This document shows positions 29,418 to 43,589 of a stretch of 49,554 nt of DNA, piece after piece (the stretch's first letter is position 1; each line of letters opens with the position of its first letter). The stretch spans positions 1 through 49,554 of IMG/VR virus record IMGVR_UViG_3300027573_000043. One strand, 5' to 3'. Source of the stretch: a virus. The translations under genes and the position numbers were made by a program. The notes beneath the pieces are model-generated. The model was not told the origin of the DNA, ran no database searches, and worked only from the letters and a program-made list of their open reading frames with translations.

Positions 29418-30445
29418 AACTCGTTAAATACGATGCTGCCTGTCGCGCCATCGCCGAAGCCAAGCGGGTCGATGACGTCAAGGCGTTCAAGGACAAGGCG
29501 ACAGCTCTCAAAGCCTACGCTCGTCAGATCAAGAACCCGCAGCTTGAAGCCGATTCATGGGCGATTAGAAAGCGGGCGGAGGACAGGCTAGGCGAGTTGA
29601 GCCTGGCGCTGGAGAAGGCGCCTGTCGTCAAAGGGGCGGGCAATCGCCGACTTCCCGTTAATGGGAAGTCGGGAAAGGCGCAGACGCTCAAGGCTGCAGG
29701 CATATCAACGTCGGCGGCCAATCGTTACGAGACCTTCCACAGGCTCCCGCAAGCGGAGAAGGAGAAGCGCATCGCGCGCGGGCGCGCCGCCATAGAGGCC
29801 GGCAAGTCCATCGCCGATACGATCATCCGACAGGATGATAAAAAGGAACGACGCGCTGAGCGCGAACAGGCGCTCGGATCGAAAATCATGGCGCTGCCGG
29901 ATAAGCGTTATGGCGTGATCTACGCCGATCCGGAATGGTTGGATGAAGTATGGTCAGAGGAGACTGGTCAAGATCGCGCGCCCGCGAACCATTATCCAGT
30001 GCAGTCGGAAGAAATCATCGCCGCGCGTGACGTGCCATCGATCAGCGCGAAAGACTGCGTGCTGTTCCTATGGACGACCAATCAGCATTTGCGCATCGCG
30101 CTCAATGTCATGGAAGCATGGGGGTTCGAATACAAATCAAATTACTGCTGGGGTAAAGATCGGATCAGCACCGGACGCTGGAATCGTTCGAAACACGAAC
30201 TCTTGCTGATCGGCGTCCGCGGCAATGTGCCTTGCCCGGCGCAAGGCGAACAGCGCGAATCGTTGATCATGGCGCCAAAGAGCGGACACTCGGCGAAGCC
30301 GGAATGCTTCCTCGAAATGATCGAGTCCTACTATCCGAACCTGCCGAAGATCGAACTCAACCGCCGCGGGCCGCCGCGGCCGGGATGGGACGCCTGGGGC
30401 AACGAAGTCGAGCCCGATGCAAAGGCGTCCGGAGGCGCGCGATGA
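29414..30445 (+). CDS. MT-A70-type DNA adenine methyltransferase
   Basis: The 343-residue protein has a helical N-terminal region (1-150; YDAACRAIAEAKRVDDVKAFKDKA ...) commonly fused to phage MT-A70 enzymes, then the catalytic domain from about 155. The usual DPPW tetrad reads ADPEW here (VIYADPEW), followed by NHYPVQ, LFLWTTNQH and a C-terminal SGHSAKPECFLEMIE. N6-adenine methylation of phage DNA against host restriction is the likely role. The gene contains a perfect 10-bp hairpin at 29647-29672. Confidence 0.83.
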   Translation: MKLVKYDAACRAIAEAKRVDDVKAFKDKATALKAYARQIKNPQLEADSWAIRKRAEDRLGELSLALEKAPVVKGAGNRRLPVNGKSGKAQTLKAAGISTSAANRYETFHRLPQAEKEKRIARGRAAIEAGKSIADTIIRQDDKKERRAEREQALGSKIMALPDKRYGVIYADPEWLDEVWSEETGQDRAPANHYPVQSEEIIAARDVPSISAKDCVLFLWTTNQHLRIALNVMEAWGFEYKSNYCWGKDRISTGRWNRSKHELLLIGVRGNVPCPAQGEQRESLIMAPKSGHSAKPECFLEMIESYYPNLPKIELNRRGPPRPGWDAWGNEVEPDAKASGGAR

Positions 30446-30648
30446 GATACGTTGAACTCGTATTCATTCGGGAAGATGACACCTGTCGGAACACACTCTT
30501 TCGCATCGACACGATTCTCAAGGTGCAGGCGATCAGCGATCTGGATCTGACCGACGCCTATTGTCTTGTCTGGATCGTCGGCGAAGAGAAACCCATCAAA
30601 GTGCTGGAAGACTATGAGACGGTTCGCGATCTGCTTACCAAGCGTTGA
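30442..30648 (+). CDS. Small unknown protein, 68 aa
   Basis: Begins MRYVELVFIREDDTCRNTLFRIDTI, mixed beta/alpha with no recognised motif. It is joined by ATGA overlap to the MT-A70 gene and lies just before the cytosine-methyltransferase-like gene. Confidence 0.6.
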   Translation: MRYVELVFIREDDTCRNTLFRIDTILKVQAISDLDLTDAYCLVWIVGEEKPIKVLEDYETVRDLLTKR

Positions 30649-30662
30649 CCCGATGGATTCTG

Positions 30663-31223
30663 ATGCGCGTCCTGGTCGCCTGTGAATTTTCCGGCGTCGT
30701 GCGCAACGCCTTCCGCGCGTTGGGGTGGGAAGCATGGTCCTGCGACCTGCTCCCGGCCGAGGACGGCAGCGTGCATCATCTCAACGGCGACGTTCGCACG
30801 TTCGTCGGCGCACCCGGTACATGGGATCTGATGATCGCGCATCCGCCATGCACGCATCTCGCGGTCTCCGGCGCGCGCTGGTTCAGGGAGAAGCAGGCCG
30901 AACAGGCCGAAGCGCTCGACTTTGTGCGCTTCCTGCTCGATGCGCCGATCCCGCGCATCGCGCTCGAGAACCCGGTCAGCATCATCTCGTCGCGCATCCG
31001 CAAGCCGGACCAGATCGTGCAGCCCTGGATGTTTGGTCACGGGGAAACCAAGGCGACGTGCCTGTGGCTGAAGAACCTGCCGAAGCTGGTCCCGACCGAT
31101 ATCGTCGAAGGCCGGACGCCGCGCGTGCATTTCGCCTCGCCCGGACCTGACCGATGGAAGGAGCGCTCGCGCACGCTGCGCGGCCTGGCGAAGGCGATGG
31201 CGTCCCAATGGGGCGCCAGATGA
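30663..31223 (+). CDS. Small DNA cytosine methyltransferase-like protein
   Basis: The 186-residue protein begins MRVLVACEFSGVVRNAFR (SAM-binding motif I-like). It has AHPPCTHLAVSG, matching the catalytic PPC of C5-cytosine methyltransferases, and ALENP where those have ENV. It lacks a separate target-recognition domain, so it is a minimal member or a relative with another role. A TTG at 30645 overlapping the previous stop (TTGA) is an alternative start adding six residues. Confidence 0.72.
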   Translation: MRVLVACEFSGVVRNAFRALGWEAWSCDLLPAEDGSVHHLNGDVRTFVGAPGTWDLMIAHPPCTHLAVSGARWFREKQAEQAEALDFVRFLLDAPIPRIALENPVSIISSRIRKPDQIVQPWMFGHGETKATCLWLKNLPKLVPTDIVEGRTPRVHFASPGPDRWKERSRTLRGLAKAMASQWGAR

Positions 31224-31287
31224 AAGGCCCGCCGCGTCTACCTTGCGACGCCGCGCGCCGACATTTCGGCAATTTCGCGAGATTCGA

Positions 31288-34098
31288 ATGACCCGCGTTG
31301 TGTCGTTAGATTTTGAGACGTGCAGCGCAATCAAGATTCAGCGCGGCGCTCCCCGATACGCATCCGATCCGACAACGCGCGTCCTCATCGCCGCCTGGGC
31401 GATCGACAACAAACCGCCCAAAGTCTGGATCATCGGCGACGATGAACCCGCGGAACTGCTCGACTTGGCGCGCGATCCGAACACGGTCTTTCGCGCGTTC
31501 AACGCGGCTTTTGAGCGCAACGTCTGGCATCACGCCTGGGCAAGGCAATGGCCGAGCGCGCCGGCAATCCCGATTGAACGCTGGACCTGCACCATGACCC
31601 GGGCGCTCGTTTGGGGCTTGCCTCGATCCTTGGAGCATGCCGGCGCGGCGATCGGCGCGCTGCAGCAGAAAGACGTCGCCGGCGCGAAGCTCATGCTCCG
31701 CATGTCGAAACCGCAGCGCGACGGGATTTGGCATCATGAAGTCGTTCCTGAGGATTTGACCGAGCTGGCGTCCTATTGCATTCGAGACGTGGAAGCAGAG
31801 CGCGCTATCGCACGCAAATTGCCGCCGACGCCGCCCGAAACAGAAGCCGGCTATCATCTCAATCAACGCATGAACACACGCGGTCTCCTGATTGACCAGG
31901 AACTTGTCCGGCGCCTGCTAGCGCTCGCCGCCGAGAAACGACAGGCGCTGCACGAACGGTTAAGCGAAATCACCTTGGGGACTGTCACGTCGCCGGACCA
32001 GCGCGAGAAGCTGCTGGAGTGGCTGCATATCATGGGCGTCGAGATTTCCGACCTGCGCCGCCAGACCGTGGCTGAGACGCTTAGAAACGGTTCCCTGAAC
32101 GGTTGTGCGCGGGAAGCGTTGCAGATTCGCGCTGACGGCTCACGCAGTTCAGTCGCAAAACTTCAAGCAATGCTCGGCGCCGTTATGGCTGATGGGCGAA
32201 TCAGAGATCCCATTTTATTCCACGGAAGTCATACTGGACGCGCCAGCGGCGCCGGGGGAGGAGGAACGCAATTTCAGAATTTCGTCCGGTCGGCGCTGCC
32301 GAAGGGCGTCAAGGTCGACGACGTGATCGGCGCCGCCCTCGACGAAGATTCGGATGTCGAGGATCTCGAGGACGAGGCCGAGGTTGACGGCCTGGCGGCG
32401 ATCGCCTCGATGCTGCGCGGCTGCGTCGTGGCCGGCGAGGGGAACGAGCTCGTCGCGTGCGACTTCGCCGGGATCGAGGCGAGGGTATTGGCGTGGATCA
32501 GCGGCAACCGGCCGATGATCGACGTGTTTCGCAGCGGCGAGGACATCTACCTGACGGCCGCCGCGCAGGCCGGAGCTCCAGGCGAGCGGATGCTTGGAAA
32601 AGTCGTGATTCTCGCGCTGGGATACGGACAGGGGCCGGTGCGGTTCGTCATTACGGCGCGCGGATACGGGGTCGAGATCAGCGAGGAGCGGGCGCAGGAG
32701 ATTGTCTGGGGCTGGCGCGAGGCGAACCCGGCCGTGACGCAATTGTGGAAGCAGCTCGACGACGCGCTGCGGCTGCTGGCGACGACGAAGGGCGACCAGG
32801 TAATCAGGATCAACCGTTACGTGTCGCTGCGCCGGTGGGGCTCGCGCGTGCTGATGCGGCTGCCGGGCGGGCGCGAGATGGTCTACCGTAATTTGCGCCT
32901 GGAGCCGGATGCGGAATCGCGCACGGGATCGTCGCTGTTCTACGATGGCGCGAAAACGATCGGCGGGAAGCTCGTCCCGTCGCGGATCTATGGCGCGGCG
33001 GCTTGTCTCGCCGGCGACACGTTCGTTCTCACTCATCGCGGATGGAAACAGATCGTCGATGTCGCACATGACGATCGCGTCTGGGACGGCGAAGCATGGG
33101 TCGCACATGACGGTCTGATCGATCAGGGCGTGCAGAGTGTGATCGAAGTCGACGGCGTCTGGATGACGCCCGATCATCAGGTTCTCACAGCGGAGGGGTG
33201 GCGTAATGGGTCGCAGGCGATTGGATCTGACTGGGCGCGTGTTCGGCTTCCTGACAGTAATCAGACCAATGGGATCAGACGGCCAGCATTCCCTGTGGGA
33301 GACGCGATGCGCATGCGGGCGCATCAAGGTTCATCTGGGCAAGCAGCTAACCAAGGGAACGAAAGCGTGCGCGTCATGCGCCAGCAAGAAGCCCCGAACG
33401 CACGGCATGTCGCGGCATCCGGCGTATGCAGTTTGGCGCTCGATGATCGATCGCTGCAGACTGCCGACACATCAGGCATGGAAGAATTACGGCGCCCGTG
33501 GAATTATGGTTTGCCTGGAGTGGCAGGCGTCGTTCGAACAGTTCTGGACGGATATGGGGCCGACCTATCAGCGAGGGTTGACGATCGAGCGCAAAGACAA
33601 CGACGCGGGTTACAGTTTGCAGAACTGCCACTGGGCCACCTACAGGGAACAGAATCGCAATCGACGAGACAACCGATACATCGACACACCATGGGGAAGA
33701 ATGACGGTGGCGGAAGCGTCGCGAAAAACAGGAATCGGCAAAACGACGCTGACATATCGACTGGATCACGGCGCGAGCGCGTCTACGATCTTCTCAATAC
33801 CGGACGTAACCACCAATTTGTCATCGCGGGGTTAAGCGGGCCGATCGTCTCGCACAACTGTGAGAACCTGGTGCAGGCCGCGGCGTACGACCTGCTCGAC
33901 CACGCGATGCGCCGGCTGGACGCCTGCGGCGTTCCGATGATCTTCTCGGTTCACGACGAGATCGTCGCCGAGGTTCCGGCCGATCGGGCGGAACGGACGC
34001 TGCGGCTGATGAAGGCGGCGATGAGCCAGCCTCCGGCGTGGGCGGAAGGGCTGCCGCTCAAGGCGGAAGGGTGGCGCGGAAAAAGGTTTCGCAAATGA
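31288..34098 (+). CDS. Family A DNA polymerase with 3'-5' exonuclease, interrupted by an intein
   Basis: The 936-residue precursor gives a 651-residue polymerase after splicing. The exonuclease domain shows D8/E10 (VSLDFETCS) and the YCIRD motif (about 170). The polymerase domain has motif A D392 (VACDFAGIEARVLAWISG), motif B K438 (LGKVVILALGYGQG) and motif C HDE 889-891 (SVHDEIVAE). The intein occupies residues 573-857, between IYGAAA and CENLVQAAAYDLL, a conserved palm segment shortly before motif C. This is the replicative polymerase of the phage. ATG 31288 is chosen because the exonuclease strand starts there. Confidence 0.92.
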   Translation: MTRVVSLDFETCSAIKIQRGAPRYASDPTTRVLIAAWAIDNKPPKVWIIGDDEPAELLDLARDPNTVFRAFNAAFERNVWHHAWARQWPSAPAIPIERWTCTMTRALVWGLPRSLEHAGAAIGALQQKDVAGAKLMLRMSKPQRDGIWHHEVVPEDLTELASYCIRDVEAERAIARKLPPTPPETEAGYHLNQRMNTRGLLIDQELVRRLLALAAEKRQALHERLSEITLGTVTSPDQREKLLEWLHIMGVEISDLRRQTVAETLRNGSLNGCAREALQIRADGSRSSVAKLQAMLGAVMADGRIRDPILFHGSHTGRASGAGGGGTQFQNFVRSALPKGVKVDDVIGAALDEDSDVEDLEDEAEVDGLAAIASMLRGCVVAGEGNELVACDFAGIEARVLAWISGNRPMIDVFRSGEDIYLTAAAQAGAPGERMLGKVVILALGYGQGPVRFVITARGYGVEISEERAQEIVWGWREANPAVTQLWKQLDDALRLLATTKGDQVIRINRYVSLRRWGSRVLMRLPGGREMVYRNLRLEPDAESRTGSSLFYDGAKTIGGKLVPSRIYGAAACLAGDTFVLTHRGWKQIVDVAHDDRVWDGEAWVAHDGLIDQGVQSVIEVDGVWMTPDHQVLTAEGWRNGSQAIGSDWARVRLPDSNQTNGIRRPAFPVGDAMRMRAHQGSSGQAANQGNESVRVMRQQEAPNARHVAASGVCSLALDDRSLQTADTSGMEELRRPWNYGLPGVAGVVRTVLDGYGADLSARVDDRAQRQRRGLQFAELPLGHLQGTESQSTRQPIHRHTMGKNDGGGSVAKNRNRQNDADISTGSRRERVYDLLNTGRNHQFVIAGLSGPIVSHNCENLVQAAAYDLLDHAMRRLDACGVPMIFSVHDEIVAEVPADRAERTLRLMKAAMSQPPAWAEGLPLKAEGWRGKRFRK
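33004..33858 (+). mobile_element. Intein in the DNA polymerase gene (285 residues)
   Basis: The first residue is Cys in block A (CLAGDTFVLTHRGWKQ). Block B is VWMTPDHQVLT (T55, H58). Block F is VYDLLNTGRNHQFVIAG, and block G PIVSHN is followed by Cys as the +1 residue. All residues for class 1 splicing are present. The Hint halves are about 68 and 26 residues. The roughly 190 residues between them in this frame show no endonuclease motif, because that DNA encodes an HNH protein in another frame (33206-33835). The polymerase frame is open throughout. Confidence 0.9.
33206..33835 (+). CDS. HNH homing endonuclease nested out of frame inside the intein
   Basis: The 209-residue protein is encoded one frame away from the polymerase. 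It has a start typical of phage HNH proteins (LTGRVFGFLTVI), a zinc-binding set CAC...CASC (residues about 35-58) and THGMSRHPAYAVWRSMIDRC. The nuclease core is YGARGIMVCLEW, TIERKDNDAGYSLQNCHWATYREQNRNRR. A C-terminal DNA-binding helix unit follows (TPWGRMTVAEASRKTGIGKTTLTYRL). The ribosome-binding site ggagggg (33192-33198) is 7 bases before the ATG, so it is probably translated on its own. It most likely spreads the intein by cutting intein-less alleles. Confidence 0.88.
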   Translation: MGRRRLDLTGRVFGFLTVIRPMGSDGQHSLWETRCACGRIKVHLGKQLTKGTKACASCASKKPRTHGMSRHPAYAVWRSMIDRCRLPTHQAWKNYGARGIMVCLEWQASFEQFWTDMGPTYQRGLTIERKDNDAGYSLQNCHWATYREQNRNRRDNRYIDTPWGRMTVAEASRKTGIGKTTLTYRLDHGASASTIFSIPDVTTNLSSRG

Positions 34099-34192
34099 GG
34101 CGAGCCGCGCCGGCGCCGTCTGACTTTCCCGTACCTGAAGTACGCGAAAGTTGCGACGCGCGCGCGGCGGCGGCTGCGCCCGAAGGCGGGAA

Positions 34193-34288
34193 ATGATGCT
34201 GACGCAGCTTGAATCGGTCGGCTTTACGGCGATCATCCTGGTCTTCGTCGCCATCAGCGCGCTGCTGGTATGGATGACGTTCAGGTGA
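34193..34288 (+). CDS. Small membrane protein, 31 aa
   Basis: Begins MMLTQLESVG and has one membrane segment (FTAIILVFVAISALLVWM). The ribosome-binding site is aaggcggg, directly upstream. It lies between the polymerase gene and the next unknown gene in the same operon. Function is unknown; a regulatory or exclusion role is only a guess. The second ATG (34196) is an equally good start. Confidence 0.55.
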   Translation: MMLTQLESVGFTAIILVFVAISALLVWMTFR

Positions 34289-34305
34289 GCGAAACGGAGG
34301 AGACA

Positions 34306-34674
34306 ATGACAGACGAGCCGGATCCGCGGATAGCGGTCGAACCCTACGAAGCGACGCCGTACGCGCAGACGGTCCCGTTCCTGCAGACGGCGCGCAACGG
34401 GTTTGTGCGGATCAGCGCCATCGACTGGATCGGCTACGATCCAACGCACGGGACGCGCACATGCGTTGCGATCGGCGGCGCCGACGCGACGCGCATCCCG
34501 GTATTGGGGACGCTCGACGAGGTCATGGCGGTCTGCGGGTTCGGCAAGGCGACGGTCGTTGCGCCGACGCCGCAGCCGACGATCGAGCCGCGGGAGCCCG
34601 AGCCGCGCGCCGGGCCGACCGACGCGCATCGTCCGATCAGTTCGAAAAGCGTCATGGACAAGCAGGGGCAGTAA
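34306..34674 (+). CDS. Unknown early protein, 122 aa
   Basis: Strong ribosome-binding site ggaggag precedes ATG 34306. The middle (TARNGFVRISAIDWIGYDP ... THGTRTCVAIGGADATRIPVL) looks like a small beta-rich domain that might bind nucleic acid or a partner. The last 35 residues are proline-rich and disordered. It is the last gene of the rightward early operon. Confidence 0.62.
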   Translation: MTDEPDPRIAVEPYEATPYAQTVPFLQTARNGFVRISAIDWIGYDPTHGTRTCVAIGGADATRIPVLGTLDEVMAVCGFGKATVVAPTPQPTIEPREPEPRAGPTDAHRPISSKSVMDKQGQ

Positions 34675-34786
34675 GGCGTTGACGCGCAGAGGCGGCGGCG
34701 TAAGGTCGCCTGCGTCTGTAGCCGGCGTCCTTCCGAAGCGCGGCTCCAGGTCTTCGTTGGATTATCCCTACTGTGAACCTGACTGG

Positions 34787-34810
34787 GCGCGTCCTTGACG
34801 CGCTCTTTTT
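34787..34810 (+). terminator. Rho-independent terminator of the early operon
   Basis: The stem gcgcgtc/gacgcgc (34787-34793, 34797-34803) has a 3-base loop and is followed by tcttttt. It ends rightward transcription and overlaps the 3' end of a leftward gene. The 112 bases before it (34675-34786) hold no gene; a -35-like ttgacg at 34679 could start a short RNA. Confidence 0.9.
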
Positions 34811-35024
34811 ATTCCGCCGCGCGTCGGTCGACGAGGGCGACGACGTTGGATGCGTCGGCGTCGTCGCGGGTGATGGCGTGCAGGATCTCGAGCGGATCCA
34901 CGCCGAGCCGGCGCGCGAGACAGAAGACTTCATACGGGGTCGGGAGGGCGTCGCCGCTGGCGAAGGAGTCGAAGCGGACAAGGATCTCAGCCTCGCATCG
35001 GGCCGTGGCGAACGTCGTCGGCAT
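34809..35024 (-). CDS. Small leftward protein, 71 aa, possible degenerate regulator
   Basis: Ribosome-binding site ggggag precedes the ATG on the minus strand. The sequence ends with TPYEVFCLARRLGVDPLEILHAITRDD, which resembles the last helices of an XRE-type domain. The first helices are not clear (FATARCEAEILVRFDSFAS). It is convergent with the early operon and divergent from the primase gene, a common place for a regulator. Three ggatarg repeats lie just upstream. Confidence 0.5.
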   Translation of the reverse strand: MPTTFATARCEAEILVRFDSFASGDALPTPYEVFCLARRLGVDPLEILHAITRDDADASNVVALVDRRAAE

Positions 35025-35053
35025 TTGTCGCTCCCCGCTTATGGTTAACGACA

Positions 35054-35085
35054 GGATAAGCAGGGGATAGGGGCGCTGGATAGGG
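35054..35085. repeat. Three short direct repeats (ggataag/ggatagg)
   Basis: ggataag at 35054-35060, ggatagg at 35065-35071 and ggatagg at 35078-35084 lie 11-13 bases apart, in the 231-bp gap between the leftward gene and the primase start. They could be operator or replication-protein sites. No gene is seen in the gap itself, though the primase frame is open from 35121. Confidence 0.4.
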
Positions 35086-35255
35086 AGCGTCTCGTCGCGC
35101 GGAGTATCGCCGACGAAAGGATGGACAGACGCTGCGTCACGGGTTTAGCGTGCTGGTTCTGCGCGGCGCCGCTTGGCGCTTTCCTGCTGATTTCGCCATC
35201 GCCGTGCGGCTCACCCAGCGACCCGAACCACGTTCGGGCGAACGCGGAGACCTGC

Positions 35256-36698
35256 ATGACCAACGACTGGCTGATGCGCGAACACATCCGGATCGCGATC
35301 GCCGACCACGCTGCGATGCAAAAGAAAAGACCCACTATTGCTAGTGGGTCTTTGGGCGGCGCCAGACCATTACTGGTTGCTGATCGCTTTCCTGCTCCGG
35401 GGACGATCAGGGAATCGGCGCCGAAAGTCAAGCAATCCACGCTGGCCGTCGCGTTCGGCGCCATTAGTAGCCCGGACATTCTGTCAAAGCAGTTCGTCAG
35501 GGTCGACGACACGATCGTCAAGGAATCGGGAACGCAGCTCTGGCGGGGCGAAGCCTGGGTGCAGCGGGTTGAGGGGGCGACGATCGTCGAGGCGCTCGAA
35601 TCGGTCGGGCGGTTCATGGAATCACTCGGGCCGGGCGAAGCCATCACGCCGGGACTGCCGCAGGCGTCAGTCGAAGCAGGCGGCGGACGGGTGCGGATCG
35701 CGTCGAAACGCTGGGCGGCGCGGATCGAGGCCACGACGCGAACCCGCGGGGCGTATGGATGGCCGAACGCCCCGGCGCTGGCGCTGGCGCCGCTCGACAA
35801 GGACACAGAGGGCGGGGAGGAACTGCCGGAGGTTCTGGCAGGCATCCATCCGGCGCTGGGCAAGGCGGCGCTGCTGCTAAGGCCGTCAGCCGCGGCGGGC
35901 GTAGCCCTGGAAGGACAGGATGCAGCCGGCGGGCGCATGCACGCCTACCTGCCGGTTCGACGCGCTGCATCAATCCCGATGCTGATCAAACTGATGTCGG
36001 CGCATGCGCTCATCCTGGGGCTCGGCGGATCCGGTCTGCGGCTCAACAAGCCGGGTGATCTGTGCCGCAAATCGTGCATCGACCCGGCGCTCGGGGACCC
36101 TGAGCATCTTTGCTACGAGGGCGCCGCCGTGTTGGGGCCGGGCCTGTGGCAGGCGACGCCGCGGGCGGCGCAGGTCCGGAACGGGCTGATTGTCGACGCC
36201 GGGGCGATGGTCACGGCGCTCGACGAGAGCGGGACAAACCACCGGCTGCGCGTCTGGGAAGCGGCCGAACGGGCGCGGTGGCGCGACGATCCCGAGCTGG
36301 CGCGGATGCGGCGCGAGCATCGGCAGGCGTATGTCGATGAGCCGGGGATAACTGCGGCGAAACGCCAGAGGCGGGCGCGGCGCCTGGCGGCCGGCGATTT
36401 CTCGGGCGGCGACGTGCGGGACGATTATGCGAACTACGGGTTCGCCCTGGCGTCGGATTCAATGACGCTGGTCGATGGCCGCGAGATCCTGCTGGCCGAG
36501 GTGCTGGACGATCCTCTGGCATTTGACGGCTGCGTCGGATCGGACCCGCTCGAGGACGTCGGGTACGGGCGGACAACAGCGCGGGTATGCGTCGATCGCG
36601 TCGGGCGGCCCTTCATTTTCAGTTTTGCACATTCGCGATCACGCTACGCGATCATCGACGATCGTGTTCTGGGTCCGGTGAAACGGAGGGGAGAATGA
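35256..36698 (+). CDS. Archaeo-eukaryotic-type primase (PrimPol-like)
   Basis: The 480-residue protein has the acidic pair D181-x-D183 (PLDKD), H229 (GRMHAYLP) and D276 (CIDPALGDPEHLCYEGAAVLGPGLWQ). Together these match AEP primase motifs in phage primase-helicase sets. N-terminal ILSKQFVR...DDTIVKE...W also fits that family. ATG 35256 has ggaga 5 bases upstream. The frame is open back to ATG 35121, but that start has no suitable ribosome-binding site, and a terminator-like hairpin lies at codons 24-33. The true start could therefore be further downstream (TTG 35352). It is coupled to the SF3 helicase by ATGA. Confidence 0.72.
   Translation: MTNDWLMREHIRIAIADHAAMQKKRPTIASGSLGGARPLLVADRFPAPGTIRESAPKVKQSTLAVAFGAISSPDILSKQFVRVDDTIVKESGTQLWRGEAWVQRVEGATIVEALESVGRFMESLGPGEAITPGLPQASVEAGGGRVRIASKRWAARIEATTRTRGAYGWPNAPALALAPLDKDTEGGEELPEVLAGIHPALGKAALLLRPSAAAGVALEGQDAAGGRMHAYLPVRRAASIPMLIKLMSAHALILGLGGSGLRLNKPGDLCRKSCIDPALGDPEHLCYEGAAVLGPGLWQATPRAAQVRNGLIVDAGAMVTALDESGTNHRLRVWEAAERARWRDDPELARMRREHRQAYVDEPGITAAKRQRRARRLAAGDFSGGDVRDDYANYGFALASDSMTLVDGREILLAEVLDDPLAFDGCVGSDPLEDVGYGRTTARVCVDRVGRPFIFSFAHSRSRYAIIDDRVLGPVKRRGE
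35326..35353. terminator. Perfect 12-bp hairpin, terminator-like, inside the primase 5' region
   Basis: aaagacccacta (35326-35337) pairs with tagtgggtcttt (35342-35353) around a 4-base loop. On the minus strand it is followed by tttctttt, a good leftward terminator. On the plus strand only the ttt of the stem is present, so rightward termination would be weak. It may protect the leftward gene or the primase region from antisense transcription, or attenuate primase expression. Confidence 0.65.
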
Positions 36699-38305
36699 GC
36701 GTGCTGCCGACGATCGATGTCCTGCTGCGGATGACGCCGCTCGGGCCGGCGTGGATGGTCGAGGACCAGGACAGGGTCATGAAGACCGCGGCGGATACCC
36801 TGAAGATATATGGCGGCAAGAAACGATTTCTGCCGCCGAAATCAAAACCGGATTCGCTCGCGTCGCACATGGTGTGCGCGAAGACGACGCTGGCCCTGGC
36901 CGCGCATCGCCTGCTGCACGCGCCGGCGATGGGGCTGTTCCTGGCGTGGAACGGGCAGCGCTATGCGCCGGGAGACGAGGTTGCGTCGGAGATCCAGCCG
37001 CTGGTCGAGGACGTGTGCAGGATGGCGTGCGGCATGAAGAAAGCGAGGGAGAAGGACATGTATGAGTACAACGCAACGGGCGAGTCGGAGGCGTTTGTGC
37101 GGGCCGTCGTGGCGCTGCTGAAACGCGATCCGCGCATCCAGGTCAGCGCCAGCGATCTCGACGCGATCGGCGAACTGATGGGCATGGACACGGGCGCTGG
37201 CGTTACATGGGACGCGAAGCAGGGCGGGGCGGTCCCGGCGCAGCCGAAATGGCTGATCACGCGAGCGCTGCGAAAGGGGCTGACGCCCAAGGCGGGGCCA
37301 GCGCCGAAGTGGGATCGGTTTCTGGACGCGGTGCTGGCCGAGTTCAAGGAGGACGCGCCTGCGGTGCGCGCGTATCTGCAGAGACACCTGGGATACTGCT
37401 GCACCGGCGACGATCCGCACCGGAAGATACTGCTGATCTGGGGGTTGGGACGGAACGGCAAATCGACGCTGATGCGCACGGTGACGGAACTGCTCGGCAC
37501 ATATGCCGTGGGCATGCCGGCCTCGGCGTTTGCGAAGGATTCATACGGCGCACGGCCGAACCAGGCGACGCCGGACATGATGGCGCTCGAGGGATGTCGG
37601 CTCGCGGTCGGGTTCGAAGCGTCGGAGAGGCTGGATGTTGAAGCGCTAAAGGCGTGGACCGGGGGCGACGCGGTGTCGGGGAGGGCGCTCTATCATGGCG
37701 TGCGCAAGATACGGACAGGCGCGAAGCTGGTGTTCATCGCCAACAAGGAGATCCAGGTTCCCGGCGCCGACGCGGCGTTTGCGGACAGGCTGGTGATGCT
37801 GCCGATGGAGGCGCGGCTGCCGGACTATTCGGACGAGTCGAGGCCCTATTGGCAGGTGCTGGTCGAGGAGGAGGGGCCGGCGATCATGGCGTGGATCCTG
37901 GAGGGCGCGCGGCTGGTCTACGCGGAGGGGAGGCTGGACGCGCCGGGCGTGCTGAAACGAGCGACGAAGGCGTTTGTACAATCGGCCGACAAATTGCTGC
38001 AGGCGATGCAGGCGGCGCTGGTCAAGGATGTCGACGGGGAGATCAGGTCGAAGGAATTATATCATACGGTCGAGCAGGCGTGGCTGGGCTCGGGGGGCAA
38101 CCCACACGACATGCCGTCGGCCAGAAGCAGGACATTCTCGGCGCGGGTGAAAGAGACTTTCGGGGCGCGGTTGCTCCAGGACAAGGAGGGTTCGTACTGG
38201 AGAGGCGTACGAAAACGTACTTTAAACGATCCGTTAGACGACCCCACGGAGGGTCAAAAAGGGACAGTTGTGGGTCTAAAAGAGCGGCGAAAGTCGCCAG
38301 GATGA
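36695..38305 (+). CDS. SF3/D5-type replicative helicase
   Basis: The 536-residue protein has an N-terminal D5-N-like region and a superfamily 3 ATPase. Walker A is GRNGKST (about 252-258), Walker B-like CRLAVGFEASE and motif C LVFIANKEIQVPG. The sequence FADRLVMLPMEARLPD supplies the arginine-finger region. Strong ribosome-binding site ggaggggag. It would unwind phage DNA at the origin with the primase encoded just before it. The iteron cluster directly after its stop supports this. Confidence 0.9.
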   Translation: MSVLPTIDVLLRMTPLGPAWMVEDQDRVMKTAADTLKIYGGKKRFLPPKSKPDSLASHMVCAKTTLALAAHRLLHAPAMGLFLAWNGQRYAPGDEVASEIQPLVEDVCRMACGMKKAREKDMYEYNATGESEAFVRAVVALLKRDPRIQVSASDLDAIGELMGMDTGAGVTWDAKQGGAVPAQPKWLITRALRKGLTPKAGPAPKWDRFLDAVLAEFKEDAPAVRAYLQRHLGYCCTGDDPHRKILLIWGLGRNGKSTLMRTVTELLGTYAVGMPASAFAKDSYGARPNQATPDMMALEGCRLAVGFEASERLDVEALKAWTGGDAVSGRALYHGVRKIRTGAKLVFIANKEIQVPGADAAFADRLVMLPMEARLPDYSDESRPYWQVLVEEEGPAIMAWILEGARLVYAEGRLDAPGVLKRATKAFVQSADKLLQAMQAALVKDVDGEIRSKELYHTVEQAWLGSGGNPHDMPSARSRTFSARVKETFGARLLQDKEGSYWRGVRKRTLNDPLDDPTEGQKGTVVGLKERRKSPG

Positions 38306-38310
38306 GCGCT

Positions 38311-38516
38311 GGTGGCATGTCGGTGGCATGTCGGTGGCATGTCGTGGCGCGACATGCCACCGGAAAACGCCTGTTGGATCAAGGATTAACAACTTGTATC
38401 ACGCGCTGGTGGCATGTGTGGCATCTCAACCCCCCTTATTCCGTATACGCGGACGCGCGCGGCTGCGCGCAAGGCTACATTTGGCGCGACATGCCATGAC
38501 ATGCCATCATGCCACC
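38311..38516. other. ori: Iteron cluster, candidate origin of replication
   Basis: Three exact 11-bp tandem copies of ggtggcatgtc (38311-38343) are followed by an inverted copy gacatgccacc (38351-38361). After a more A/T-rich 46-bp spacer there is another direct copy (ggtggcatgt, 38408-38417), with a partial one next to it. Three inverted copies follow (38488-38496, 38498-38506, 38509-38516). Facing iterons around A/T-rich DNA next to primase and SF3 helicase genes fit a replication origin. The 238-bp gap 38306-38543 holds no gene. Confidence 0.7.
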
Positions 38517-38543
38517 GCGCCCGTGTTGTGGTAGCGTCGCGTC

Positions 38544-38903
38544 ATGCCTTCGTCGCGTCTTCGCTTGCGCCTGCGTCCCGGCCGTTGCGGTCCAACGCCC
38601 GCGTCGTTCTACGAGAATCGGGTCGAGTTTAAAAAGGATGGTTATCCTAACGGGCGAAGGATCTGCGAGGCGATAGCCTGGCGTTCGGGCGAGCGTTGCG
38701 GCTGCCTGGCCGCTTATGCGACGAACGTGTGCCAGTGGCACGGCGCGCGGAAGGTTCTTGCAGAGCTCGATCTTGTCCGGCGGGTAAGACGGGTCAGCAT
38801 CGCGCGGGAGAAGCGGCTTGGGCGGGAAAGCGAGCCACGGATGGTGGCTGCGGGATACGAAGTTGACGCGCAAGCTGAAGGCGCAGAAGCTGGTGAGGGA
38901 TAA
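38544..38903 (+). CDS. Small Cys/His protein, 119 aa, near the small terminase
   Basis: The middle part, RRICEAIAWRSGERCGCLAAYATNVCQWHGARK, has the C-x(8)-C...C-x-x-H-G layout of small phage proteins that I have seen next to terminase genes. Four cysteines and a histidine could bind zinc. The N-terminus is arginine-rich. No clear ribosome-binding site is seen, and the start could be downstream. Function is unknown. Confidence 0.6.
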   Translation: MPSSRLRLRLRPGRCGPTPASFYENRVEFKKDGYPNGRRICEAIAWRSGERCGCLAAYATNVCQWHGARKVLAELDLVRRVRRVSIAREKRLGRESEPRMVAAGYEVDAQAEGAEAGEG

Positions 38904-38913
38904 GCGTAAGCGT

Positions 38914-39273
38914 ATGGCGAAACAGGTGAAAAAGCTCGAGCCGAGGACCCTGCCGATCGTTATACAGGATAACGGCGGTCTCGAGCGACTGACCGAGCAG
39001 AGTATGGCTACGTTACGTGAGGTTGCCACAGACCAGGACGCCCCGGCTTCCGCTAGGACAAGCGCCGCAAGATCACTCGCCGAAATCGCCGGTTTGATCG
39101 GCCGACAAAAGCCAAAAGCCAATACAAATCAACGACCTACGGCCGAGCTGTCGCTCGACGAAATCGATCGGGAGATCGCGGCATTAACTGCACTCGACCA
39201 GCCCGAACAACGTTCAAAATCGGAGCCTGCCGTAGCGTCAGATGCTAGGCCCAAGAGGGTCTCGCCCGGCTGA
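38914..39273 (+). CDS. terS: Probable terminase small subunit
   Basis: The protein of 119 residues (135 if TTG 38863 is used) has a basic N-terminus and a helical centre (LERLTEQSMATLREVATDQDAPASARTSAARSLAEIAGLIGRQK), which resembles small-terminase cores. A C-terminal element (ELSLDEIDREIAALTAL) often ends such proteins. It would bind the packaging site; repeats that could be that site lie directly downstream. It is separated from terL by the accessory cluster, fibres and lysis genes. Assignment is by pattern. Confidence 0.55.
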   Translation: MAKQVKKLEPRTLPIVIQDNGGLERLTEQSMATLREVATDQDAPASARTSAARSLAEIAGLIGRQKPKANTNQRPTAELSLDEIDREIAALTALDQPEQRSKSEPAVASDARPKRVSPG

Positions 39274-39389
39274 AACTGGGACCAGAACCGGTACCCGATA
39301 CCAGTACGCAGCCATAAGCCTATTCATATCAAGCACTTAGCCAATACGTTGAGCGGATCGGGTGTCCGCCTAACCCCCTCGAACGGGGC

Positions 39390-39510
39390 GCGAACATCGT
39401 TCAGGCCCGTGACCTTACGTTGCTGTAACGTCATGACGTAAGGTAAGTAGGAATTAAGTCAAGTGACCCTCCGCTATCCGGGATTTTAGTCCGCGAACAT
39501 CGTTCAGGCC
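39390..39510. repeat. 18-bp direct repeat, two copies
   Basis: gcgaacatcgttcaggcc occurs at 39390-39407 and again at 39493-39510, 103 bases apart. They flank the acgt-rich inverted repeats at 39413-39443 in the non-coding region after the probable small terminase. Candidate roles are a packaging (pac/cos) recognition region or regulator binding. I see no gene in 39274-39713. Confidence 0.65.
39413..39443. repeat. Nested acgt palindromes
   Basis: ccttacgt (39413-39420) pairs with acgtaagg (39436-39443), and inside it acgtcatgacgt (39428-39439) is a perfect 12-bp palindrome. Only one of the two structures can form at a time, and no T-run follows. This looks like a protein-binding site rather than a terminator. 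Confidence 0.5.
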
Positions 39511-39648
39511 GCCTCCCGCCCCCTGGCGCAGTCCGCGAGCAGCGCGGCGGCGGGGCCGACACCCCAACTCCGAGTTGAAATTCTACCGACCTATCTAACA
39601 ATGCGTGTATTTGCGTAGTAAGCGGCCTTTTTCGATGCCTGAAACGCC

Positions 39649-39683
39649 GAAGGCCCCAGGATGTCTCCGGGGGCCTTCTTTTC
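39649..39683 (+). terminator. Rho-independent terminator
   Basis: The stem gaaggcccc (39649-39657) with ggggccttc (39670-39678) is followed by ttttc. A second smaller hairpin (gcggc-tgc-gccgc, 39691-39703) with ctgtttt follows. They end rightward transcription from the terminase region before the leftward cluster, or end a non-coding RNA starting in 39274-39640. Confidence 0.8.
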
Positions 39684-39713
39684 AATCCTCGCGGCTGCGC
39701 CGCCTGTTTTCCC

Positions 39714-40124
39714 TTACTTGCGACCCAAACCGGCGGCATGCGCTCTTTGACGCAGCGCCTCCCGGAAGTCGTCCGAAATATCCTTGCGTAAGCCGACCAG
39801 GTCGCGGATTTCGACGGCTTCGGCCGCCGTCGGCGTTCGCAACAGGCGCAGCACGCCTTCCCCGTCGCCGTCCTGGGTCACGGCGCAGAACCCGAGTCGT
39901 TTCTTCGCCCAGCTCCACGCCAGCGCCGAACGCGCCGACACGACCAGCATCAGGCTTCGTCCGTCGCCCCATGTCGCGGCGTATCCGTGCTTTCCCTGCA
40001 GCGTCCAGCAGCGGCAGTCGTCCAGCTTCATCGCGCCGGGCGTGACCTCGAGCGCGACGCGCCATTCCTCGAGCAGCGCTTTGTCGGCGAGCTGGTCTTT
40101 CAGCGATTTGTATGTATCGGCCAT
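39714..40124 (-). CDS. Unknown protein, 136 aa
   Basis: The minus-strand ATG at 40124 has ggaggaga upstream. The protein begins MADTYKSLKDQLADKALLEEWRVALE and has a beta-rich middle (CRCWTLQGKHGYAATWGDGRSLMLVVSARS). A helical C-terminus (AAEAVEIRDLVGLRKDISDDFREALRQ) follows. No family is recognised. It is the last gene of the leftward cluster. Confidence 0.62.
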   Translation of the reverse strand: MADTYKSLKDQLADKALLEEWRVALEVTPGAMKLDDCRCWTLQGKHGYAATWGDGRSLMLVVSARSALAWSWAKKRLGFCAVTQDGDGEGVLRLLRTPTAAEAVEIRDLVGLRKDISDDFREALRQRAHAAGLGRK

Positions 40125-40153
40125 GCGTCGGGTCTCCTCCCCCCTTCGATCGA

Positions 40154-40729
40154 TCACATCGTCAGCAGCGCGAACGCCACGGCCGCGGCCCCCGCGCCGG
40201 ATCCGACGACTGCGACAAGCCCGAGCGCCAGCGCGATTTCGCCGCCTATCGACATCCAGCGCAGGCCGAGCCATGCAACCAGTCCGCAGCACAGGAACCA
40301 GAACCCGACCAGGACGCGCCCGAAGATTTTTTCGTTGCGTTGATCCCTGGCGATGCGCGCCTTCACTTCCGGCGAATTGAAGTGGTCGTAGATCGTCGGC
40401 GGACCGGCGGCGGCCGCCGTCGCGACGCGCTCCCGCTGTTCGCAGACCGCTATTCCGTGCCAGGAACTCTTCGGGTCGCACGGATCGGATGACGCTGGCG
40501 TCGCCCCCGGCGCGTATGTCGTCCCCGGCGCGACGAAGCGCGGATTCGTCACGATCGGTCCGACCCGATGCGGATCGTTCGCTCCCCCAGGCGTATATTC
40601 AATCGAGACCGGCGGCGGCGGCGCCCACATCGTCGCCCGCATCGAATCCGAATTAGGTTCGACGATGGTCCCGGCGCCGACGGGCGCGATCGTCGCGATC
40701 ATCGCGGCGCAGATCAGAATCTTCCTCAT
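40154..40729 (-). CDS. Exported membrane protein, 191 aa, unknown
   Basis: It begins with a clear signal peptide (MRKILICAAMIATIAPVGAG). A proline-rich, probably periplasmic stretch follows (about 21-130, with two cysteine pairs C83/C96 region), then two C-terminal membrane segments (VGFWFLCCGLVAWLGL and IALALGLVAVVGSGAGAAAVAFALL). The ribosome-binding site on the minus strand is ggggaaag. Envelope location suggests superinfection exclusion or another lysogen trait, but there is no direct evidence. Confidence 0.65.
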   Translation of the reverse strand: MRKILICAAMIATIAPVGAGTIVEPNSDSMRATMWAPPPPVSIEYTPGGANDPHRVGPIVTNPRFVAPGTTYAPGATPASSDPCDPKSSWHGIAVCEQRERVATAAAAGPPTIYDHFNSPEVKARIARDQRNEKIFGRVLVGFWFLCCGLVAWLGLRWMSIGGEIALALGLVAVVGSGAGAAAVAFALLTM

Positions 40730-40782
40730 GGTCTTTCCCCCTCTGGCTGATTGGCTGTGCAGTTAATTCACGCCGCGTCGCG

Positions 40783-41148
40783 TCACGGCGGATCGTATTT
40801 CTCTTCGATGATGCGATCGATGATGGCGTCCTGTTTCTCCGACGGCTTCCAGCCCCTGCCCCGCGCCCGCGCGAGGATGCTGTCGACGAAGTCCTGCTCC
40901 CACGCCGAGAGGCGCGCTTCGTCGATGCGGCGCAGCGCCGAGAGGCGCGCCGCGAGGTTCGGCTCCCGCGGCGCCGGCGGCCCCGTCGAGAGCATGGCGA
41001 GCAGTTCGTCGACGCGGATCCGCTTGGCGTCCGCGAGCCTCTTGAGGACGGCGAGCGCGTTCATCGCCTCGCCGTCCCGGTCCGACGAGAGCATCGCCGC
41101 CACCTTGCGCGCCCGGATCAGTTCGTCGGTCGTCAGGATGGCGGCCAT
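40783..41148 (-). CDS. Unknown helical protein, 121 aa
   Basis: Begins MAAILTTDELIRARKVAAMLSSDRDGEAMNALAVLKRLA, a pattern I have seen in many phage and mobile-element proteins of unknown function. The second half (LSAWEQDFVDSILARARGRGWKPSEKQDAIIDRI) looks like the SeqA/terminase-like helical motif found next to it in those proteins. A DNA-related role is possible. Confidence 0.65.
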   Translation of the reverse strand: MAAILTTDELIRARKVAAMLSSDRDGEAMNALAVLKRLADAKRIRVDELLAMLSTGPPAPREPNLAARLSALRRIDEARLSAWEQDFVDSILARARGRGWKPSEKQDAIIDRIIEEKYDPP

Positions 41149-41151
41149 GCG

Positions 41152-41361
41152 TCAGCGCCGCCGCCACTCGCCGACGACCAGTTTCCCGCCACTCTCGAAC
41201 ACGATCGACGCCTGCAGCGCCGCCAGTATCTTCTCGATCGGCGCGTCGACCATCCACGCCACAGCCTCGCGCGTCAGGCCGCGCATGATCATTCCCGATT
41301 CCTTGTCCACGAGGATCCAGTCCCTGCCCCGCGCATCTTCCCCTGCTTCACTCGCCTTCAT
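41152..41361 (-). CDS. Small unknown protein, 69 aa
   Basis: Sequence MKASEAGEDARGRDWILVDKESGMIMRGLTREAVAWMVDAP and on is a small alpha/beta protein without recognised motif. It begins inside the 3' end of the upstream membrane-protein gene (14-base overlap) and ends three bases before the next gene of the cluster. Confidence 0.55.
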   Translation of the reverse strand: MKASEAGEDARGRDWILVDKESGMIMRGLTREAVAWMVDAPIEKILAALQASIVFESGGKLVVGEWRRR

Positions 41362-41458
41362 CGTTCCGCCCCCACATGATCCAGATCAGATACAGCCCCG
41401 CGGCGACGCAGCTGAACGCCAGCCACGCGATCGTCGCGTCGAGAAACGTCGAGATCAT
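41348..41458 (-). CDS. Small single-pass membrane protein, 36 aa
   Basis: MISTFLDATIAWLAFSCVAAGLYLIWIMW forms one membrane segment followed by an acidic/basic end (GRNDEGE). The ATG overlaps the stop of the helix-turn-helix gene (ATGA), which supports it as a real coupled gene. Function is unknown. Confidence 0.55.
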   Translation of the reverse strand: MISTFLDATIAWLAFSCVAAGLYLIWIMWGRNDEGE

Positions 41459-41670
41459 CGCTTCGCCCGTCGCACGCTCGCGTTCAGCCGCGCCTTCGCC
41501 AGCGCCTTCGGGTCGTCGAGCCACGCCTGGAGCTGCATCATCACGGCGTCCGGCGCTCCGTCCTGCGGCGACGCCCACCGATGCGACGTGCGAACCCCCA
41601 CGCCAAACAACCGCGCCGCCTCGACCTGCGACAGGCGCAAAGCCTCGAGCGCGGCGCGGTAGGCGTTCAC
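41455..41670 (-). CDS. Small helix-turn-helix regulator, 71 aa
   Basis: The N-terminal helices (AYRAALEALRLSQVEAARLFGVGVRTSHRWASPQDGAP) match a phage XRE/YiaG-like helix-turn-helix with the recognition helix in VGVRTSHRW. The C-terminus is basic. It may control its own leftward cluster; a perfect 17-bp dyad lies just upstream of that cluster (42175-42191). Confidence 0.7.
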   Translation of the reverse strand: MNAYRAALEALRLSQVEAARLFGVGVRTSHRWASPQDGAPDAVMMQLQAWLDDPKALAKARLNASVRRAKR

Positions 41671-41900
41671 GCGACGTCTTTATTGACGCGCGCCCATGCG
41701 TCGATCGCTATCTGGTCGAGGCCGCGATCCTTCAGCAGCAGATAGGGAAAGTTGACGATCTGCCAGTCATGCAGATCCGACAGGTTCTTGCCTGCGTCGA
41801 GATAGCAGGCATGGCAGGCGTAGTGGCGCGCGCCGTATTTGACGAGCGGCCTGCGCTGTCCAGCGAAGTCTGATCGTTTGCAAAAGCGGCAGGTGCTCAT
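41667..41900 (-). CDS. Small zinc-ribbon-like protein, 77 aa
   Basis: MSTCRFCKRSDF and HYACHACYLDAGK supply two C-x-x-C pairs, a likely zinc ribbon. The C-terminal part (WQIVNFPYLLLKDRGLDQIAIDAWARV) is helical. ATG 41900 overlaps the next stop (ATGA). The frame is open further upstream, but the zinc ribbon begins here. Confidence 0.65.
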   Translation of the reverse strand: MSTCRFCKRSDFAGQRRPLVKYGARHYACHACYLDAGKNLSDLHDWQIVNFPYLLLKDRGLDQIAIDAWARVNKDVA

Positions 41901-42118
41901 GATTGCACCACATGAACGAGATGCTGGCTTGAAGTGCTGTTGAGACTCCAAGGCTTCGGCAGGCACTTTTCGAACGACGCGGCGCGCTTAACGCGGCCTG
42001 TGTCGTGGTTGACGAAAACCCATGTCCCGTTCGTCGTCTCGACAGCGACGCCCAGTTCGGAAGCGCGCGGATCGCCCGCCATGCTGCGCCAGACCTTGTA
42101 AGCAGATAGTTCTTTCAT
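41897..42118 (-). CDS. Small unknown protein, 73 aa
   Basis: First gene of the leftward cluster: MKELSAYKVWRSMAGDPRASELGVAVETTNGTWVFVNHDTGRVKRA and on. It is a small, probably beta-rich protein; no family is recognised. A gagacag element upstream may serve as ribosome-binding site. Confidence 0.58.
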   Translation of the reverse strand: MKELSAYKVWRSMAGDPRASELGVAVETTNGTWVFVNHDTGRVKRAASFEKCLPKPWSLNSTSSQHLVHVVQS

Positions 42119-42174
42119 GATGGCTGTCTCGCTGAGTAGTTGAGTCTCGCCGGGTCTCGGCGACCAGACACAAC

Positions 42175-42191
42175 TACGCCATTTTGGCGTA
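42175..42191. promoter_or_regulatory. Perfect 17-bp dyad in the divergent gap
   Basis: tacgcca-ttt-tggcgta is exactly symmetrical and lies in the 196-bp gap 42119-42314 between the leftward cluster and the rightward fibre genes. It is a good operator candidate for the helix-turn-helix protein of the cluster. No gene is seen in the gap. Confidence 0.55.
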
Positions 42192-42314
42192 CCACGTCAA
42201 GCGACGAAACGCGACAATCTTGCCCCTCGCGCCGACGCAGCGTAAGACATCCCCGCGCCGGAAGGTCTGGAGTCGGCCGCCAGAGCTCGTGAACGCCATC
42301 GCGGAGCCGCGGCC

Positions 42315-43589
42315 ATGACCATCCAGCGACCCCAGCTCAAGTTCCCGTTCACCGGCCAGACAGTCCCCGGCGACGTCATCCGCGACCAGGTGGTCGAGAC
42401 CCACCGCGCGATCGACCAGGTCATCGACCAGCTCGACCGGCCTCCCGCCCCTCACTCGATTCCCTTCAGCGCCCTCGCGCCCGAGACCCTGCGCGGCATC
42501 GCCGACGAGATCGCCGCAAAATCCCTGCGCGAGATCAACGACGCCCGCCTCGCCCTCGCCGCAGCCGCGTCGGACGTGCTCCTGGCGAACGAAGCCGCAG
42601 CCAGGGCCTCTCAGGCCGCGGCCAGAGCCGAACAGGCCGCCAGAGTGATCCTGGAAGGTTCTGGAGCCGCTCTGACGCAGATCCACGCGCAGATCACGCA
42701 GGCGACGCAACGACTCGAGGCGGCGCAGCAGTCGGCGCTCGACGTGTCGCAACAATCCAGCGCCGTCATGCTGAGCGCCAGCGCCGCCGAGAACTGGAGC
42801 GTCGCCTCCTGGCACTGGGCCGAATACATGGGCGGCCCCGGCGACGAGACCCTCCCCGCCGACACCGTCGCCATGTTCGACCTGACCGGCGACCACTGGA
42901 GCGCCCGGTGGTGGGCGAACAAGGCCGCCGAATATGCGTCGGGCGCCGACGGTTCGAACGGCGAGGCCGGCGAAGCGGGAGCCGCGGCCGAAGCCGCGTT
43001 GGACGAGTTCCAGACCTGGTACCTGGGCGCTTTCTCCGTCCCGCCCGTGCTCGACGGCGACGGCGACCCCATCGTCGAAGGCGCATTGTACTTCGACACC
43101 GTCGTCGACCAGATGCAGGTCTGGGACGGAACCCAGTGGCTCGCTTTTGTTCATGACGGCGTCCAGGGACCCATGGGACCCCAGGGAATCCAGGGCGAGC
43201 AGGGCGATGTAGGGCCCATGGGGCCCCAGGGAATCCCGGGCGAGCAGGGCGATGCCGGCCCTGCGGGTCCCGCTGGAGCTGACAGTATCGTGCAGGGACC
43301 GCAGGGCATTCCTGGGGAGCCTGGGGCCACAGGTCTTGATGGACCCGTGGGACCTGCCGGTCCCGCCGGAGCCGACGGAGCCGACGGAGCCGATGGTTTG
43401 GCCGGAGCCGACGGAGCCCCCGGCGCGACAGGCCCCGCCGGCCCTCAAGGCGAGGCCGGCGAGGTCGAGGAGGCCCCTATAGATGGCGGACAATATGTCA
43501 GGAAGGACGGGGTGTGGGAGCTTGTCGACGTCTCGGGCGGCGGTGGAACCGGGACCGTGACGATTATTAACAGCGGCTCGTTCTTCTAG
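42315..43589 (+). CDS. Tail fibre with collagen-like repeats
   Basis: The 424-residue protein has an N-terminal attachment part ([38 protein letters not shown]) and an Ala/Gln-rich coiled coil (about 70-165). A conserved unit follows ([56 protein letters not shown]), then about 100 residues of Gly-X-Y collagen-like repeats (283-383) and a short tip. Its first ~270 residues are paralogous to the fibre at 46464. It probably forms trimers that extend from the tail. Confidence 0.85.

What the first reader, a model, noticed from the sequence alone, without database searches (positions are those of the whole stretch)
38311..38516. Facing iteron clusters next to primase and SF3 helicase: likely origin
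Eight full or near-full copies of tggcatgtc, the first three in exact 11-bp tandem, face inverted copies across A/T-richer DNA. Spacing of 11 bp puts the copies on one face of the helix. The helicase or primase may bind them.
Basis: partly seen in the sequence, partly recalled or inferred. Interest (0 to 1): 0.7.

Follow-up and report, generated by a model that had tools for sequence, protein, structure and literature searches.

The report
Phage replication origin beside its helicase
A 206-base cluster of facing short repeats directly behind a phage's helicase gene is very probably where the phage starts copying its DNA; the layout is known from phage satellites, and comparison shows it in many complete phages too.

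Summary
The repeats are real. TGGCATG occurs 8 times in the 49,554-base window (4 per strand), all within 38313-38514; simulated sequences never exceed 6 copies of any 7-mer in so short a span. The cluster starts 5 bases after the stop codon of a D5/P4-family SF3 helicase gene, downstream of a primase-like gene. The predicted helicase ends in a winged helix, and its best solved-structure match is SaPI5 Rep (Z 28.7). Published work says SaPI Rep reads iterons directly downstream of its own gene with its C-terminal domain.

No close relative of this phage was found. Among 93 loci (92 with related SF3 helicases), 66 have their strongest inverted repeat in the 310 bp after the helicase stop (about 5 expected); 60 of 83 reach the cut-off there against 1 of 83 on the 5' side. 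Repeat sequences differ between phages, and phiadh's region is annotated rep_origin. RHph_N65-type phages, with an unrelated RecA-fold helicase, carry iteron arrays in the same place.

Verdict: a replication origin of SaPI/PICI type in a complete phage, probably read by its helicase. It is a new member of a known kind. The GC skew does not support it, only one spacer is A/T-rich, and no experiment was possible.

The parts
35121..36698 (+). primase-like gene (525 aa), upstream partner of the helicase
   Evidence: phrog_16593 'DNA primase' 1e-15, residues 118-348; no Pfam match; no relative in phage records or viral contigs
36695..38305 (+). SF3 (D5/P4-family) initiator helicase; probable start at the ATGA overlap (36695-36698), 536 aa; the longer ORF opens at 36587
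   Evidence: TIGR01613 'phage/plasmid primase, P4 family' above cut-off; D5_N above cut-off; AF2 model best matches SaPI5 Rep 7om0_D Z 28.7, 406 residues; residues 1-57 pLDDT < 50; ATGA overlap
37991..38221 (+). segment coding helicase residues about 469-545: predicted C-terminal winged helix, proposed iteron reader
   Evidence: AF2 E478-487 H488-501 H515-525 E528-532 E535-543, block pLDDT mostly 77-95; covariation
38311..38362 (.). iteron cluster 1: three direct TGGCATGTC at 11 bp plus one inverted copy
38363..38402 (.). spacer 1, 60% AT, candidate duplex-unwinding element
   Evidence: 60-bp window from 38370 at the 97.5th percentile of the window for low duplex stability
38403..38427 (+). 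iteron cluster 2: two direct, imperfect copies (TGGCATGTG, TGGCATCTC)
38428..38483 (.). spacer 2, contains CGTATACGCG (about 38442-38451) and GCGCGCGG/GCGCGC: short alternating purine-pyrimidine tract like that between facing iterons in relatives
   Evidence: 10-bp alternating run, top 4% of same-length stretches
38484..38517 (-). iteron cluster 3: three inverted copies facing cluster 2

Best explanation
38311-38517 is the phage's replication origin. The SF3 helicase encoded immediately upstream binds the TGGCATGTC iterons with its C-terminal winged helix. Facing iteron sets would load helicase rings (in SaPI Rep apparently two hexamers) that point at each other over the spacers, melt the A/T-rich or alternating purine-pyrimidine DNA between, and thread onto single strands; the neighbouring primase then primes and the phage's own family-A DNA polymerase extends. 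Shown here: repeats, position, protein family and fold, recurrence of the architecture, statistical covariation. Inferred: binding, loading, melting, initiation, directionality.
For: Repeat cluster unique in the window and far beyond simulation. Directly 3' of a P4/D5-family SF3 helicase gene. AF2 model with C-terminal winged helix; best match SaPI5 primase-helicase, Z 28.7 over residues 60-546. [quoted passage not shown] PICI ori = two iteron sets flanking an AT-rich region 3' of rep, and cloned rep-ori drives plasmid maintenance (PMC6092414). Survey: strongest inverted repeat of the locus lies in the 310 bp after the helicase stop in 66/93 loci vs 4.8 expected; score >=12 in 60/83 at 3' vs 1/83 at 5'. 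phiadh has this region annotated as rep_origin. Iteron similarity correlates with the C-terminal part of the helicase after controlling for the rest (partial r 0.28; SF3 core -0.02; Mantel p 0.002).
Against: No direct evidence of replication or binding. No close relative of this phage, so conservation of this exact site is untested. About 27 of 93 loci lack a top-ranked repeat. GC skew has a maximum, not a minimum, near 39 kb. RHph_N65-type phages keep downstream iterons with an unrelated RecA-fold helicase, so the format does not depend on SF3. The N-terminal part also covaries with iterons (r 0.23).
Confidence: 0.83

Rival explanations
1. Origin, but the iterons are read by another protein (primase, a small phage protein, or a host factor) and the helicase is only recruited.
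For: RHph_N65-type phages, Mae-Yong1326-1 and L182 have iterons directly 3' of RecA-fold helicases that are not SF3; in RSF1010 a separate RepC reads the iterons (stated in PMC4234260).
Against: The SF3 helicase model has its own C-terminal winged helix and best matches SaPI5 Rep, whose family binds iterons through that end; iteron identity tracks the C-terminal part.
Confidence: 0.1
2. Operator cluster for a transcription regulator at the meeting point of rightward replication genes and the leftward genes beyond 39 kb.
For: Intergenic position; gene orientation appears to change near 39-40 kb.
Against: No sigma-70-like promoter within 38250-38600 (weak test); repeats form three clusters with facing orientation as in phiadh and PICI origins; position is fixed behind the helicase gene across unrelated phages.
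Confidence: 0.04
3. Partition or incompatibility site (parS-like) for maintenance as a plasmid prophage.
For: Iterons can serve partition in plasmids (general knowledge).
Against: The phage carries an integrase (20035-21087); no ParA/ParB was found among the window proteins scanned, though not every ORF was scanned; position and helicase link point to replication.
Confidence: 0.02
4. Transcription terminator or other RNA hairpin of the helicase mRNA.
For: Perfect 13-bp inverted arms with a 5-nt loop at 38332-38362.
Against: No T-run after the hairpin; terminator scan finds nothing on + strand; no Rfam match; a terminator does not explain nine copies over 206 bp.
Confidence: 0.01

Closest known systems
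SaPI / PICI pri-rep-ori replication origins (SaPI5, SaPIbov1, EcCICFT073)
   Same: SF3/D5-type Rep with best structural match to SaPI5 Rep; ori directly 3' of rep; iteron sets facing each other around easily melted DNA (PMC6092414, PMC7581432).
   Different: Here in a phage record with terminase, portal, capsid, tail-fibre genes and its own polymerase; three clusters rather than two; iteron sequence different; primase is a separate gene.
Lactobacillus phage phiadh origin (NC_000896, rep_origin 13084-13469)
   Same: Facing arrays of short iterons from the stop codon of a P4-family primase/helicase gene, around A/T-rich DNA.
   Different: Low-GC host; iteron GTGTATAGTT; primase domain fused to the helicase.
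Phage P4 alpha / ori-crr
   Same: P4-family SF3 helicase (TIGR01613) whose C-terminal winged helix binds short ori repeats (described in PMC4234260).
   Different: P4 alpha is fused to a Toprim primase and P4 also needs crr (from memory); no crr-like second cluster here.
pRN1 and Bordetella BIP-1/BPP-1 downstream stem-loop origins (PMC4234260)
   Same: Putative origin directly 3' of a primase-SF3-winged-helix gene, made of facing inverted arms.
   Different: One arm pair only (BPP-1 GGCGTCAGC/GCTGACGCC), no multi-copy iterons.
RHph_N65 / Mae-Yong1326-1 type podophages
   Same: Nearest by terminase (43-52% identity); iteron arrays directly 3' of the replicative helicase gene.
   Different: Helicase is RecA-fold AAA_25, not SF3; iterons TGGCGGAGAT and ACTGGCGC. 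For Mae-Yong1326-1 the helicase type rests on its GenBank annotation 'RecA-family ATPase'.

Membership tests
SaPI/PICI-type rep-ori replicon | Rep is a D5/P4-family SF3 helicase with C-terminal winged helix | tested here: met
   TIGR01613 above cut-off; AF2/VIA best match SaPI5 Rep 7om0_D Z 28.7, rmsd 5.2, 406 aligned
SaPI/PICI-type rep-ori replicon | Iterons immediately 3' of rep | tested here: met
   Stop at 38305, first iteron 38311-38313
SaPI/PICI-type rep-ori replicon | Two iteron sets flanking an AT-rich region | tested here: inconclusive
   Three clusters; spacer 1 is AT-rich (60%), spacer 2 before the inverted set is not (38%)
SaPI/PICI-type rep-ori replicon | Rep C-terminal domain binds the iterons; rep plus ori replicates a plasmid | not testable with these tools
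   Only statistical covariation across relatives
PICI (the element itself) | Satellite lacking its own full phage structural genes | tested here: not met
   Terminase, portal, major head, tail fibre, integrase, DNA polymerase genes present
P4-family primase/helicase (TIGR01613) | Match above curated cut-off | tested here: met
   132 bits vs 108.7
DnaA-dependent oriC-type origin | DnaA boxes TTATNCACA in the region | tested here: not met
   None in 38250-38560, nor any in the window

The most novel reading that the evidence does not exclude
[quoted passage not shown] It is kept when the helicase is swapped between unrelated superfamilies (SF3 and RecA-fold), its iteron sequence diversifies with the C-terminal part of the helicase, and in one large group an 18-30 bp alternating purine-pyrimidine tract sits between the facing iterons as a possible melting element.
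Probability: 0.55. Interest if true: 0.55.

Novelty: new member of a known kind. Interest (0 to 1): 0.42.

Why it matters
It gives a specific, small (about 200 bp) candidate origin and its likely initiator for an uncultured temperate phage. The comparison also offers a simple rule, look directly 3' of the initiator helicase for facing iterons, that predicts origins in many uncharacterised phages and ties phage origins to those of their satellites. The paired variation of iterons and helicase C-terminal parts would allow a direct test of how origin specificity evolves and whether satellites and phages can use each other's origins.

Tried and rejected
Close relatives: none by single-protein scans of viral contigs or genome contigs, none by megablast of window 1-25000; the phage is orphan-like, so all comparative evidence is from distant relatives. 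Searching viral contigs for the tandem TGGCATGTC found two contigs that proved to be another iteron array (AAAGACATGCC) 3' of a Toprim/AAA_25 primase-helicase: similar by selection of the search, not homology. Exact 8-mer counting alone called only 16 of 77 viral-contig loci; many relatives have just two iterons per arm, so inverted-repeat scoring was used instead. DnaA boxes: none. tRNA and Rfam: none. GC skew as origin evidence: rejected, because its sign follows gene orientation. phmmer of helicase and primase against PDB: nothing useful; the SaPI5 link came only from the fold. Pan4's DnaG-type primase is unrelated to the window's primase. Caveats: survey loci are partly related to each other, were not each checked for being satellites or plasmids, and the RecA-type survey gave 19/75 with a unique top iteron cluster, mostly among the closest relatives and without facing arms as strong.

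Full report
What is there. The window is a 49,554-base IMG/VR virus record with terminase, portal, major head, integrase, SNF2-type helicase, exonuclease, family-A DNA polymerase, primase-like, SF3 helicase and tail-fibre genes. By terminase its nearest named phages are Microcystis phage Mae-Yong1326-1 (52%) and Rhizobium phage RHph_N65 (43%). The cluster lies at 38311-38517, starting 5 bases after the stop of the helicase gene.

Observation. Six exact and three near copies of TGGCATGTC form three clusters: three direct plus one inverted (38311-38362), two direct (38403-38427), three inverted (38484-38517). Every TGGCATG in the window, four per strand, is here. No other 300-bp stretch outside this cluster has more than 4 copies of any 8-mer, and 200 third-order Markov simulations never exceeded 6 copies of a 7-mer in 206 bp against 8 observed. 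The 11-bp spacing applies to the first three only. Spacer 1 (38363-38402) is 60% AT in a region of about 35-40% AT; spacer 2 (38428-38483) is not AT-rich but holds CGTATACGCG, a short alternating purine-pyrimidine run.

The helicase. The ORF 36587-38305 most likely starts at 36695, where ATGA overlaps the primase stop; the first 57 residues of the longer ORF are unstructured in the model. It passes the cut-offs of TIGR01613 (phage/plasmid primase, P4 family) and D5_N. The AlphaFold model (mean pLDDT 78.5) has a helicase core and a C-terminal strand-helix-helix-strand-strand unit, a winged helix. VIA-align places SaPI5 primase-helicase first (7om0_D, Z 28.7, 406 residues, model 60-546), followed by vaccinia/mpox D5/E5, ASFV PrimPol and NrS-1; the leading rows are within about 1 Z of each other, so this is a fold class, not a unique assignment.

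What is published. [quoted passage not shown] the related Cch2 binds direct repeats downstream of its gene, through its C-terminal domain, and needs the iteron for activity (PMC7581432). PICI origins lie immediately 3' of rep, always with two iteron sets flanking an AT-rich region, and a cloned rep-ori segment supports plasmid maintenance; [quoted passage not shown] pRN1 needs a stem-loop 3' of its primase-SF3-winged-helix gene, and Bordetella phage BIP-1 has a similar one (PMC4234260); in BPP-1 I find facing arms GGCGTCAGC/GCTGACGCC there.

Survey. I took 15 phage records (14 SF3 plus RHph_N65), 77 usable viral contigs with SF3 helicases and the window. In 66 of 93 loci the 310 bp after the helicase stop hold the strongest inverted repeat of the locus (4.8 expected by chance; loops under 12 nt, i.e. 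ordinary terminators, were excluded). At a fixed cut-off 60 of 83 have one on the 3' side and 1 of 83 on the 5' side. The arms are tandem iterons facing each other, with different sequences: AGAACAGAT (LeMond), AGGGACGG (Marcoliusprime), GTGTATAGTT (phiadh, annotated rep_origin), GGAGGATA (Pan4), GGTGGATAG (B025), TCTGACGGG (AcaML1). About 27 loci, including Tuck, DrManhattan, AbbeyMikolon and a Vibrio phage, lack it, so the linkage is frequent and not universal.

Who reads the iterons. Across 66 loci, iteron similarity correlates with identity of the helicase's C-terminal part when the rest is controlled (partial rank r 0.28, Mantel p 0.002), not with the SF3 core (-0.02), and also with the N-terminal part (0.23). 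This is supportive but not tree-corrected. With the predicted winged helix and the SaPI precedent it makes the helicase the likeliest reader.

A twist. RHph_N65 has no SF3 helicase: its protein is Prim-Pol, PriCT_2 and AAA_25 (RecA fold), yet twelve copies of an 8-mer from TGGCGGAGAT sit directly 3' of it with inverted copies beyond. Seven of its ten nearest viral-contig relatives have 7-10 copies of an iteron there, each with its own sequence or one of a few shared ones; over 75 such loci, 19 have the unique top cluster there. Mae-Yong1326-1 and contig L182 show the same. The format therefore outlives replacement of the helicase, or arose more than once. Between facing iterons many relatives carry an 18-30 bp alternating purine-pyrimidine tract (45 of 68 loci at p < 0.05; 23 of 40 after removing similar arms); the window's is shorter (10 bp, p 0.04).

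Mechanism. Most likely the helicase's winged helices bind the iterons, two oppositely oriented assemblies form, the spacer between them melts, rings load on single strands, the adjacent primase primes and the phage polymerase extends. Binding, loading and initiation are inferred.

What does not fit. The cumulative GC skew peaks at about 39 kb, opposite to a simple bidirectional origin; predicted genes left of it run rightward and several beyond it leftward, which explains the sign. No close relative exists in the collections searched, so site conservation could not be tested directly.

Verdict. A genuine, ordinary-in-kind replication origin; new member of a known kind, with a comparative result (format general in phages and independent of helicase superfamily) that is more interesting than the site itself.

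Noticed in passing
window 33004-33858 (inside DNA polymerase gene 31243-34098): In-frame 285-aa intein-like insert in the family-A DNA polymerase: starts C-LAGDTFVLTHRGW, has TPDHQVLTAEGW, ends VSHN before C-ENLVQAAAYDLL; Pfam finds no domain in it.
   Followed up: partly
window about 32000-43000: Cumulative GC skew rises to a maximum near 39 kb and then falls, matching a switch from rightward to leftward gene content.
   Followed up: partly
L182 3300-3550 and L181 around 2860: Iteron array AAAGACATGCC directly 3' of a Toprim plus AAA_25 primase-helicase gene on the - strand (gene checked in L182 only), with facing copies.
   Followed up: partly
L075, L011, L054, L061, L079, L095 and others, directly 3' of the SF3 helicase: 18-30 bp perfectly alternating purine-pyrimidine tracts (e.g. 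TATACGCGTGTGCGCGCACACACGCGTATA in L079) between facing iteron arms: possible melting or Z-DNA element.
   Followed up: partly
window 29414-30445 and 30645-31223: Two DNA methyltransferase-like genes just upstream of the polymerase gene.
   Followed up: no
L101-L107, directly 3' of the RecA-type helicase: Iteron sub-arrays separated by similar A/T-rich spacers; in RHph_N65 and L101 these read like GCTAAGTCATTG, while the iterons differ.
   Followed up: partly
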